Positions 41,649 to 53,178 of a stretch of 64,000 nt of DNA are shown here, piece after piece. This DNA comes from Pseudoduganella dura (GTDB lineage Bacteria; Pseudomonadota; Gammaproteobacteria; Burkholderiales; Burkholderiaceae_D). The DNA lies in NCBI RefSeq assembly GCF_009727155.1, contig NZ_WNWM01000002.1:558001-622000 (forward strand), in the 5' to 3' direction. Each line of letters begins with the position of its first letter. The stretch's first letter is position 1. Under the pieces are notes generated by a model. It saw only the letters and a list, made by a program, of their open reading frames with translations, was not told where the DNA came from and did no database searches. Made by a program: the position numbers and the translations under genes.

Positions 41649-42605
41649 ATGGTACAAACCCGGCAGTTCAATGGCTTCCACGAGAAGCAAGCGGACACGA
41701 TCGCCCTGCGGCAGGCGGTGGACAGCCGCATCGCGCAGCTGCTCGGCGACAGCGTGGACCCGCTGGCCGCGGCGATGCGCGCCGGCGCGCTCGGCAGCGG
41801 CAAGCGCATGCGCCCGCTGCTGGTGATGCTGGTCGCCCGCGACCTCGGCGTGACATCGCCCGACGTGCTCGACGTGGCCTGCGCGGTCGAACTGGTGCAT
41901 GCCTCGTCGCTGATCCTGGACGACATGCCGTGCATGGACAATGCGCGGCTGCGGCGCGGCAAGCCCGCCGTGCACGTGCAGTTCGGCGAGGATGTCGCCA
42001 TCCTGGCGTCGATCGCGCTGCTCAGCCGCGCCTTCTGCGTCGTCTCGTCCGCCCAGCACCTGGCACCGGCCACGCGTTCGCGCCTGGTCTGTACCCTGAG
42101 CGAAACCATCGGCGCGCAGGGGCTGGCGCGCGGCCAGTTCCAGGACCTGCGCGGCAACGGCCAGCGCTCGGCCGACGAAATCACCACCACCAATGAACTG
42201 AAGACCGGCGTGCTGCTCGGCGTCGCCGTGGAAATGGCGGCCGTGCTGGCACAGGCAAGCGACGCGGTGACGCAATCGCTGCGCGCCTTCGCGATGGCCG
42301 CAGGCCACGCGTTCCAGATCCGCGACGATTTCGCCGACGGCGGCGACAGCGCCATCACCGGCAAGGACACCGGCAAGGATATCGGCAAGGCAACGCTGGT
42401 CAACACGCTCGGCCCGGCCGAGGCGCGCCGCCGCATGGGCGCCTACGTGCAGCAGGCGGAACGCCACCTGGGCGATGCGCTGGGCCCCGGCGGGCATACG
42501 CATGCCTACATGGCGCAGCTGCTGGCGCAGGCATCCCCGGCCCCGCAGATCGTGCCCGCCATCGCGCCGCGCCCGGCCGCGCAGCTCGGCGCGCAGTTCG
42601 TCTAG
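41649..42605 (+). CDS. crtE: Geranylgeranyl diphosphate synthase
   Basis: A 318-residue polyprenyl synthetase from the ATG at 41649 (a TTG at 41643 is less likely). First aspartate motif: LILDDMPCMDNARLRRGKPA (DDxxxxD); second: IRDDFADGGDSAITGKD (DDxxD). KRMRPLLVML and the ARGQFQDL segment are also conserved. It condenses IPP with allylic diphosphates to GGPP, the carotenoid precursor. It is the first gene of crtEXYIB. TTGAAG (41559) and TACTTT (41583) about 18 bases apart may form its promoter. No idi gene is present in the cluster. Confidence 0.92.
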   Translation: MVQTRQFNGFHEKQADTIALRQAVDSRIAQLLGDSVDPLAAAMRAGALGSGKRMRPLLVMLVARDLGVTSPDVLDVACAVELVHASSLILDDMPCMDNARLRRGKPAVHVQFGEDVAILASIALLSRAFCVVSSAQHLAPATRSRLVCTLSETIGAQGLARGQFQDLRGNGQRSADEITTTNELKTGVLLGVAVEMAAVLAQASDAVTQSLRAFAMAAGHAFQIRDDFADGGDSAITGKDTGKDIGKATLVNTLGPAEARRRMGAYVQQAERHLGDALGPGGHTHAYMAQLLAQASPAPQIVPAIAPRPAAQLGAQFV

Positions 42606-50908: not shown

Positions 50909-51526
50909 TCATGAAAAAAACTTTATGAAGAGGAACATCACCGCCTGCAGAGCAGCGAAAACAACCCCGGATACTACCACTGCCGAGGCCGCTGCTGTGA
51001 TCATTCCTGCAATAATCCAGTAGCCGTCCCGCTCCAGTACGCCAAGCGCGAGCATGCTGATCGCCAGCGCCGGCAGCATGTTCCCCAGCGGAATCGGCAA
51101 CAGCACCACGATCGCCAGCAGCAGGCAGATCAGCCCCACCACGTATTCCATCGGCGGCAGCGCGCAGATGCTGGCACGTGGCCGCAGCATGCGTTCGGCG
51201 CGGCGCAGCCATGGATTGATGCGCCCGATCAGCGCCTGGAAATCGGTGCGCGCCATCGAACGCCGGGCGATGAACCCGGGCAGCCACGGCTTGCGGGCGA
51301 ACGCCAGCTGGGCGGCCAGCAGCACCAGCGGCGCGCCCAGGATCACCGAGGTGCCCGGCAATGCAGGCAGCGCGTTGGGGCACGCGAACACGAACAGCAA
51401 GGCGCCGAGCGCCCGGTCGGCCAGCGCCGTCAGCAGGTCGCCGACGGAAATGCGTTCGCGCCCGCCGTCCTCGGCCAGGCCCTGCAGGATCTCCGACAGG
51501 GCCGGCCCGCCTGAAAGGTGCTTCAT
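50909..51526 (-). CDS. exoD: ExoD-family membrane protein
   Basis: A 205-residue protein from the ATG at 51526, with GGAGA upstream. An N-terminal amphipathic part (LSEILQGLAEDGGRERISVG) leads to hydrophobic segments such as LGALLFVFACPNALPALPGT, which contains the proline-rich loop of the ExoD family, and LICLLLAIVVLLPIPLGNML. Rhizobial ExoD affects exopolysaccharide production and alkaline tolerance; the mechanism is unknown. The start overlaps the stop of the WPDY small gene by four bases, so its translation is probably coupled to it. Confidence 0.88.
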   Translation of the reverse strand: MKHLSGGPALSEILQGLAEDGGRERISVGDLLTALADRALGALLFVFACPNALPALPGTSVILGAPLVLLAAQLAFARKPWLPGFIARRSMARTDFQALIGRINPWLRRAERMLRPRASICALPPMEYVVGLICLLLAIVVLLPIPLGNMLPALAISMLALGVLERDGYWIIAGMITAAASAVVVSGVVFAALQAVMFLFIKFFS

Positions 51527-51612
51527 CGCCCGTCTCCCATCGTCGTCGTCCGCCGGTAGTCGGGCCAATAGTCGGGCCAGTAGTCGGGCCAATACATGAT
51601 CGTCATGGTCAT
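51523..51612 (-). CDS. 29-residue WPDY-repeat small protein between terC and exoD
   Basis: This minus-strand frame starts with an ATG at 51612, immediately after the TGA of the TerC gene (51613-51615). GAAGGAGA inside the end of that gene is its ribosome-binding site. The product is MTMTIM followed by YWPDYWPDYWPDY and RRTTTMGDGR. The repeats are three 12-base units (variants of TAGTCGGGCCAA on the plus strand, 51556-51594). Its stop overlaps the exoD ATG (ATGA). Precise adjacency to both neighbours and a good ribosome-binding site support translation. I know no family with this repeat. Confidence 0.6.
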   Translation of the reverse strand: MTMTIMYWPDYWPDYWPDYRRTTTMGDGR

Positions 51613-53178
51613 TCAGTCTCCTTCCGCCAGCGCGGCTTCGATCCGGCGGATCGATACCTTGGCGATGCGCCGGTCCGCCACCGCGAGCACTTCGTAACGC
51701 AGGCCGTCGAGTTCGATGGCCTGGCCCACCTCGGGGAAGCTCTCGAAGCGCGCCAGCAGGAAGCCGGCCAGCGACGTGTACTCGGCATCCTCGCCCACCA
51801 GCCCATCGGTTTCCAGCGCTTGCTGCAGCAGGTGCAGGTCGGCCACACCGTCGACTTCCCACACGCCGGGCGCGCGGGACTGGATGGCCAGCTGCTCGTC
51901 CTCGTCGGGGAATTCGCCGGCGATCGCCTCCAGGATGTCGACCGGTGTCAGCAGGCCCTGGACCACGCCGTATTCGTCCGTCACCAGCACCAGCTGGCCG
52001 TGCGAGCGCTTCAGCGTGTCCATCGACTTGAGCACGCCGGCGGTATCGGGCATGACGATGGGCTTGCGCAGCCGTGCGCCCGCGCCGGCCTCGTCGATGC
52101 GCCGGCGCAGCAGCAGGTCGCTGATCAGGTCCTTGGTGCGCCCGATGCCGATCACATTGTCGAGCTCACCCCGGCACACCGGTAGCAGGCCGTGCGGCGT
52201 TTCCTGCAACTGGCGCAGGATGTCGTCCGCGGCGTCGTCGAGGTTGACCCACGAGATCTCCGACCGCGGCGTCATCACCGAACGGATCGACCGGTCGGCC
52301 AGCGCCAGCACGCCGCTGACCATGTTGCGTTCCTCGACGGCGAAGGCGTCCTGTTGCACCGGCGCCTCGTGCGGCACCTCGCCGGCCGCATCGGTACGCC
52401 TGCGGCCGCCCATCAGGCGCAGCACCGATTCGGCCGTGCGGTCGCGGAACGGCACGCGCGCCTCGTTCTTGATGAAATTACGGCGCGCGAACTGGTTCAG
52501 CGTTTCGATCACGATCGAGAAGCCGATGGCCGCGTACAGGTAACCCTTCGGGATATGGAAGCCCAGACCCTCGGCCACCAGCGACAGGCCGATCATCAGC
52601 AGGAACGAGAGGCACAGCACGACGACGGTCGGATGCGCGTTGACGAAGCGCGTGAGCGGCTTCGAGGCCAGGATCATCACGCCGATGGAGATCACCACCG
52701 CCGCCATCATCACGCCCAGTTCGTCGACCATGCCCACCGCGGTGATCACGGCATCGAGCGAGAACACCGCGTCGAGCACGACGATCTGCGCCACCACGGC
52801 GCCGAAGCCGGCATACACCTTCGATTCGGACAGGGCGTGCGTCACCCCTTCCAGGCGTTCGTGCAGTTCCATCGTGGCCTTGAACAGCAGGAACACGCCG
52901 CCGCCCAGCAGGATCAGGTCGCGGCCGGAAAAGTCCAGCGGCCCGACCGAGAACAGCGGCGCCGTGAGGGTGACCAGCCACGAGACGATGGTCAGCAGGC
53001 CGAGCCGCATCAGCATCGCCAGCGACAGGCCGATCAGCCGCGCCTTGTCGCGCTGGTGGGGCGGCAGCTTGTCGGCCAGGATGGCGATGAAGATCAGGTT
53101 ATCGATGCCCAGGACAATTTCCAGGACGATGAGCGTGAGCAATCCTGCCCATATTGCCGGGTCGAACAGCCATTCCAT
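51613..53178 (-). CDS. TerC-family membrane protein with CBS and CorC/HlyC domains
   Basis: A 521-residue protein from the ATG at 53178 ([20 protein letters not shown]). [20 protein letters not shown] and [20 protein letters not shown] are the TerC half-repeats with conserved aspartates. From about residue 300 two CBS domains ([40 protein letters not shown]) are followed by a CorC/HlyC transporter-associated domain. Such fusions are linked to metal (manganese or tellurite) efflux or membrane homeostasis. The next two genes downstream are coupled to it. No riboswitch was found upstream, unlike mntP. Confidence 0.88.

What the first reader, a model, noticed from the sequence alone, without database searches (positions are those of the whole stretch)
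51523..51612. WPDY-repeat microprotein coupled between terC and exoD
The 29-codon frame begins directly after the TerC stop and has a good ribosome-binding site inside that gene. It carries three in-frame 12-base repeats encoding WPDY and ends in an ATGA overlap with exoD. Both boundaries being in register is unlikely by chance. Aromatic/acidic tandem repeats of this kind are not known to me in any small-protein family. It may be a coupling leader that controls exoD, or a membrane- or metal-associated microprotein acting with TerC and ExoD.
Basis: partly seen in the sequence, partly recalled or inferred. Interest (0 to 1): 0.7.

Follow-up and report, generated by a model that had tools for sequence, protein, structure and literature searches.

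The report
Repeat insertion between two bacterial genes
A short stretch with three copies of a 12-base repeat lies between two neighbouring genes in one bacterial lineage and happens to leave a small readable frame; it looks like a recent, mostly ordinary insertion rather than a conserved small protein.

Summary
On the minus strand, 51612-51523 encodes a 29-aa frame with three WPDY repeats, starting directly after the terC stop and sharing ATGA with exoD. The microprotein reading is not supported. In the 6 relatives found with terC directly upstream of exoD the frame is absent: the genes overlap or lie 2 nt apart. In all six the terC frame already meets the TGA inside exoD's ATGA, so the exoD-side register is ancestral. 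An open run of 29 codons is expected by chance about half the time. The extra 84 nt lie between two GGAGAC copies; without them terC would end ...AEGDGR*, overlapping exoD as in relatives. YWPDYWPDY-coding DNA occurs in 1 of 74 genus genomes and 1 of 392 sampled family genomes, both this one, and in 5 other genomes of a large collection, none with terC or exoD in the DNA held. Best reading: a lineage-specific repeat insertion made a proto-ORF on an inherited ribosome-binding site, probably translated at some level and at most coupling terC to exoD translation. Translation and sister-strain DNA could not be tested.

The parts
51616..53178 (-). terC: TerC membrane domain with CBS and CorC_HlyC domains, 521 aa from ATG 53178; stop codon at 51613-51615
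   Evidence: Pfam PF03741, PF00571, PF03471; closest relative P0001 521 aa, 98% identical over the searched C-terminal part
51523..51612 (-). 29-codon frame (proto-ORF) with three WPDY repeats
   Evidence: the ORF listing; absent from 6 of 6 directly adjacent terC-exoD junctions of relatives
51557..51594 (-). 12-base tandem array, 3.2 copies, unit TAYTGGCCCGAC on the minus strand
   Evidence: TRF score 69; three exact unit matches and no others with up to 1 mismatch in the window
51538..51621 (-). 84-nt stretch from the first GGAGAC (51616-51621) up to the second (51532-51537); candidate insert
   Evidence: spacing 84 nt; joining the flanks gives a terC end and ATGA overlap like those of relatives
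51616..51623 (-). Shine-Dalgarno-like AAGGAGAC at the end of terC, in front of the small frame
   Evidence: -8.8 kcal/mol duplex with anti-SD
51532..51538 (-). GGGAGAC, exoD's own Shine-Dalgarno-like site inside the small frame
   Evidence: -7.3 kcal/mol, weaker than the exoD sites of all six relatives, -9.3 to -16.8
50909..51526 (-). exoD: ExoD family protein, 205 aa
   Evidence: Pfam PF06055, E 1e-55

Best explanation
A recent lineage-specific insertion or local expansion of about 84 nt, including a 12-bp tandem repeat that probably grew by replication slippage, separated the normally overlapping terC and exoD genes. The insert left a small frame that starts on the ribosome-binding site at the end of terC and ends in the old exoD ATGA. 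Shown: the frame, the repeat, its absence in the relatives read, and the ancestral register. Inferred: slippage as the mechanism, and that ribosomes ending terC translate the small frame at some level and then reach exoD by termination-reinitiation, so it acts at most as a passive coupling link. I found no evidence that the peptide itself has a function.
For: Relatives L003-L006 (same genus, ExoD about 80-82% identical) and L028, L030 (another genus) have no gap: 4 of 6 share ATGA directly, 1 shares TGATG, 1 has a 2-nt gap, and in 6 of 6 the terC frame meets TGA at exoD's ATGA. Joining at GGAGAC gives ...[10 protein letters not shown] with ATGA. In the closest ExoD relative, P0121, 4 of 6 differences fall at residues 2-5 (2e-7 if spread uniformly, the stretch being chosen after seeing it), so the junction seems rewritten recently. 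The repeat pattern is in 1 of 74 genus genomes and 1 of 392 sampled family genomes, both this one. The 131-bp stretch has no other listed match in its own genome better than E 0.035 (11 of 67 first-look candidates were scored). P(open) is 0.53-0.64. Genomes of other families carry similar 12-mer arrays in varied frames.
Against: A shared 6-mer is found in 41% of comparable random stretches, so GGAGAC is weak evidence of the break points. The close relative P0001 has the same TerC end (...AEGD), so the terC stop may be older than the insert and the exact event is unresolved. Frame 0 has the highest third-position GC of the three frames (0.86; terC 0.90, exoD 0.83), which is coding-like, although its first-position GC (0.41) is not. 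No DNA of a sister strain could be read.
Confidence: 0.77

Rival explanations
1. Coupling leader (a stronger form of the best explanation, not exclusive of it): the small frame sits behind the strong ancestral-type Shine-Dalgarno site, exoD now has a weaker site of its own, and exoD is made mainly by reinitiation at ATGA after translation of the small frame.
For: smORF site -8.8 kcal/mol against -7.3 for exoD; the six relatives' exoD sites are -9.3 to -16.8; ATGA overlap. A functional intergenic ORF promoting translation of the next gene is known: mgtQ between mgtC and mgtB (PMC8092293, outline and abstract read).
Against: Found in one lineage only. exoD still has GGGAG 7 nt upstream of its start. 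No exceptional RNA structure: z -1.29, 20 of 200 shuffles fold as well. No experimental data.
Confidence: 0.3
2. Functional WPDY-repeat microprotein working with TerC or ExoD.
For: Intact frame, good ribosome-binding site, GC3 0.86.
Against: No orthologue in the 17 loci with a strong ExoD relative; no Pfam or NCBIfam match and best PDB match E 1.9; none of the 120 listed TerC and 120 listed ExoD relatives contains WPDY.
Confidence: 0.04
3. N-terminal extension of ExoD: the array is also open in the exoD frame (LARLLARLLARL...) with a possible TTG start.
For: The exoD frame is open far upstream and reads LARLLARLLARLPADDDDGRRAMKHL. Some relatives' database ExoD entries start about 10 residues earlier (215 aa, e.g. 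P0132).
Against: The eleven closest (P0121-P0131, 205-206 aa) begin at the matching M, and none of the 120 listed has LARL in its first 40 residues.
Confidence: 0.04

Closest known systems
Bacterial minisatellites / slippage-prone short tandem repeats (general knowledge, recalled)
   Same: Short unit (12 bp), few near-identical copies, found in one lineage; similar arrays occur in genomes of other families
   Different: Copy-number variation between strains could not be tested
Intergenic regulatory small ORFs such as mgtQ of Salmonella (PMC8092293, outline and abstract read)
   Same: Small ORF between two genes, before the downstream gene
   Different: mgtQ has 8 codons and releases a downstream ribosome site held in a stem-loop; no exceptional structure was found here, and there is no conservation or experiment
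Overlapping or abutting terC-exoD gene pair of related genomes (L003-L006, L028, L030)
   Same: Same genes, same ATGA register
   Different: They lack the insert and the small frame

Membership tests
Conserved small-protein family | Orthologous intact frame in related genomes | tested here: not met
   0 of 6 directly adjacent terC-exoD junctions; WPDYWPDY in no frame of the 17 loci with a strong ExoD relative
Conserved small-protein family | Match to a curated family or solved structure | tested here: not met
   0 Pfam at E <= 0.001, 0 NCBIfam at E <= 1; only PDB match E 1.9. PHROGs and PADLOC not searched
Conserved small-protein family | Relatives in the large protein database | not testable with these tools
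Intergenic coupling / regulatory ORF | Ribosome-binding site and stop-start overlap with the downstream gene | tested here: met
   -8.8 kcal/mol; ATGA overlap
Intergenic coupling / regulatory ORF | RNA structure that hides the downstream start | tested here: inconclusive
   z -1.29; 20 of 200 shuffles as stable
Intergenic coupling / regulatory ORF | Translation of the small frame changes downstream expression | not testable with these tools
   needs reporter or ribosome profiling
Tandem repeat (minisatellite) | Head-to-tail near-identical units | tested here: met
   3.2 copies, 92% matches
Tandem repeat (minisatellite) | Copy number varies between close strains | not tested
   no DNA of a close strain could be fetched

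The most novel reading that the evidence does not exclude
A newborn gene caught in the act: a slippage-made repeat split an overlapping gene pair, took over the downstream gene's ribosome-binding site, and now sets exoD output by translational coupling, with repeat copy number (each unit 12 nt, so always in frame) as a possible tuning knob.
Probability: 0.08. Interest if true: 0.5.

Novelty: new member of a known kind. Interest (0 to 1): 0.16.

Why it matters
It is a clean example of how an apparently well-registered small ORF can come from an inherited gene overlap plus an in-frame repeat insertion. That is a caution for small-protein annotation in GC-rich genomes, and possibly a small natural experiment in translational coupling.

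Tried and rejected
Rejected: a conserved microprotein (no orthologous frame); a mobile element or second genomic copy (best other listed match in the own genome E 0.035, with 11 of 67 first-look candidates scored); an RNA structural element (z -1.29); an ExoD N-terminal extension; a terC C-terminal tail cut off by a stop (of the 25 TerC tails printed, most end at about the same place, lengths 520-523; a few run longer, up to 540, none with WPD).

Led nowhere: viral contigs (10 stretches matched a pattern, none encodes a relative); plasmids (one Pseudomonas aeruginosa record, 28% of the query at 80.5%, a TerC family gene); paper searches for WPDY + repeat (5 listed, unrelated by title and abstract start), exoD + terC + operon (0), small ORF and coupling terms (10 listed, one opened) and small protein/repeat terms (6 listed, nothing relevant by title); promoter scan (0 found) and terminator scan (2 found against a mean of 1.0 in shuffles, neither in the small frame). 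In one search relative L003 was missed by the script and terC was given a start 3 nt too far upstream; both were redone. The family sample left out the closest relatives in the genus, so the whole genus was searched.

Full report
Observation. The minus strand at 51612-51523 holds a 29-codon frame, MTMTIMYWPDYWPDYWPDYRRTTTMGDGR, that begins in the base after the terC stop and ends in the TGA of exoD's ATGA. The 12-bp array (51557-51594, 3.2 copies, score 69) is the highest-scoring of 43 tandem-repeat rows in the window. Neighbours are a TerC-CBS-CorC_HlyC protein, an ExoD protein, and further on a BacA protein.

How surprising is the register? Random 87-nt stretches of the window are open in a given frame in 64% of 20,000 draws, and first-order Markov sequences in 53%. 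The array is open in all three forward frames, so an open WPDY frame is not special. The T/C alternation in the array is a Tyr synonym in this frame but also a Leu synonym in the exoD frame, so it does not tell them apart (read from the translations).

Relatives. ExoD was searched in all 74 genomes held of the genus (12 with a match at E <= 0.001, this genome included), in 392 genomes sampled from the family (13 at E <= 1e-40, this genome included; the first look's candidates were capped at 8 scored per genome) and in 62 genomes of a second genus (3 at E <= 1e-90). Seventeen loci outside this genome hold an ExoD relative at E < 1e-40 in my tblastn (L003-L010, L028-L036). Six have terC directly upstream (L003-L006, L028, L030). 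L029 and L032 have another gene in between; in L029 it is a Peptidase_M48 protein, in L032 a similar frame by eye. L010 and L033 have the order exoD-terC. The other seven show no terC orthologue beside exoD within the DNA held (L007 and L009 have only a 31% hit to the C-terminal part). WPDYWPDY is in no frame of any of the 17 loci. In the six direct junctions the genes share ATGA (L003, L005, L006, L030), share TGATG (L004) or lie 2 nt apart (L028), and in all six the terC frame meets the TGA inside exoD's ATGA. The window keeps exactly this register with extra DNA in between.

The extra DNA. Two copies of GGAGAC lie 84 nt apart. Joining the flanks at them gives a terC ending ...[13 protein letters not shown] that overlaps exoD by ATGA, the layout and nearly the length seen in relatives. 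The 6-mer match alone is weak evidence (41% of 2000 comparable random stretches share some 6-mer). The closest ExoD relative, P0121 (97%), differs at only 6 residues, 4 of them residues 2-5 (about 2e-7 if spread uniformly, with the stretch chosen after seeing it), so the start of exoD seems to have been rewritten after that split. P0121 begins MTK, like the MT of the small frame, so an alternative is that the small frame's start is the old exoD start; the TerC end of P0001, the same ...AEGD as the window's, is compatible with either. Without sister-strain DNA I cannot choose.

Distribution of the repeat. DNA for YWPDYWPDY is in 1 of 74 genomes of the genus and 1 of 392 sampled from the family, in both cases this one. 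A scan of the genome-contig collection gave 7 stretches from 5 genomes: Caballeronia (a Burkholderiales genus, taxonomy recalled), a Hyphomicrobiales MAG, two actinobacteria and one Phormidesmis MAG with three of the stretches; the window's own genome may be left out of that scan. None of the 7 loci holds an exoD or terC relative in the DNA held, and the WPDY frame there runs from about 20 to 175 codons between stops. A 131-bp query finds no second copy in its own genome better than E 0.035, with 11 of 67 first-look candidates scored. My reading is that such arrays arise repeatedly and are not a family.

Translation signals. The small frame's Shine-Dalgarno pairing is -8.8 kcal/mol (an in-frame ATG two codons on scores -9.1), exoD's own -7.3, and the exoD starts of the six relatives -9.3 to -16.8; random 20-mers reach -7.9 at 5%. 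So an ancestral-type strong site now sits in front of the small frame, and coupling to exoD by reinitiation is plausible but untested. The local RNA fold is not exceptional (z -1.29). Codon-position GC is 0.41/0.55/0.86 in the frame against 0.71/0.39/0.90 for terC and 0.69/0.47/0.83 for exoD: coding-like at the third position only.

Databases and papers. No Pfam or NCBIfam match and no meaningful PDB match. No listed TerC or ExoD relative (120 each) contains WPDY. Paper searches found nothing on a WPDY repeat or an exoD-terC operon. The nearest functional analogue met is mgtQ, an 8-residue intergenic ORF that promotes translation of the next gene (PMC8092293; outline and abstract read).

Conclusion. 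Real sequence, ordinary origin: a lineage-specific in-frame repeat insertion that left a proto-ORF on an inherited ribosome-binding site. It is possibly a passive coupling link and very unlikely a conserved microprotein.

Noticed in passing
L029:587-1462 and L032 (same position): In two relatives a separate gene lies between terC and exoD: a Peptidase_M48 protein in L029 and a similar frame by eye in L032, so this junction accepts inserted genes.
   Followed up: partly
L023, L025, L027: One Phormidesmis priestleyi MAG (ULC027bin1) has WPDY-coding 12-bp arrays on three contigs, two of them apparently at contig ends, suggesting a dispersed repeat that breaks assembly.
   Followed up: no
window 51613-53178: TerC here is fused to CBS and CorC_HlyC domains; its C-terminal part resembles PaeA/CorC models of NCBIfam, below their cut-offs.
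   Followed up: no
window 42356-42390: Another 12-bp array (CACCGGCAAGGA, 2.9 copies, 91% matches), so short period-12 arrays are not unique in the window.
   Followed up: no
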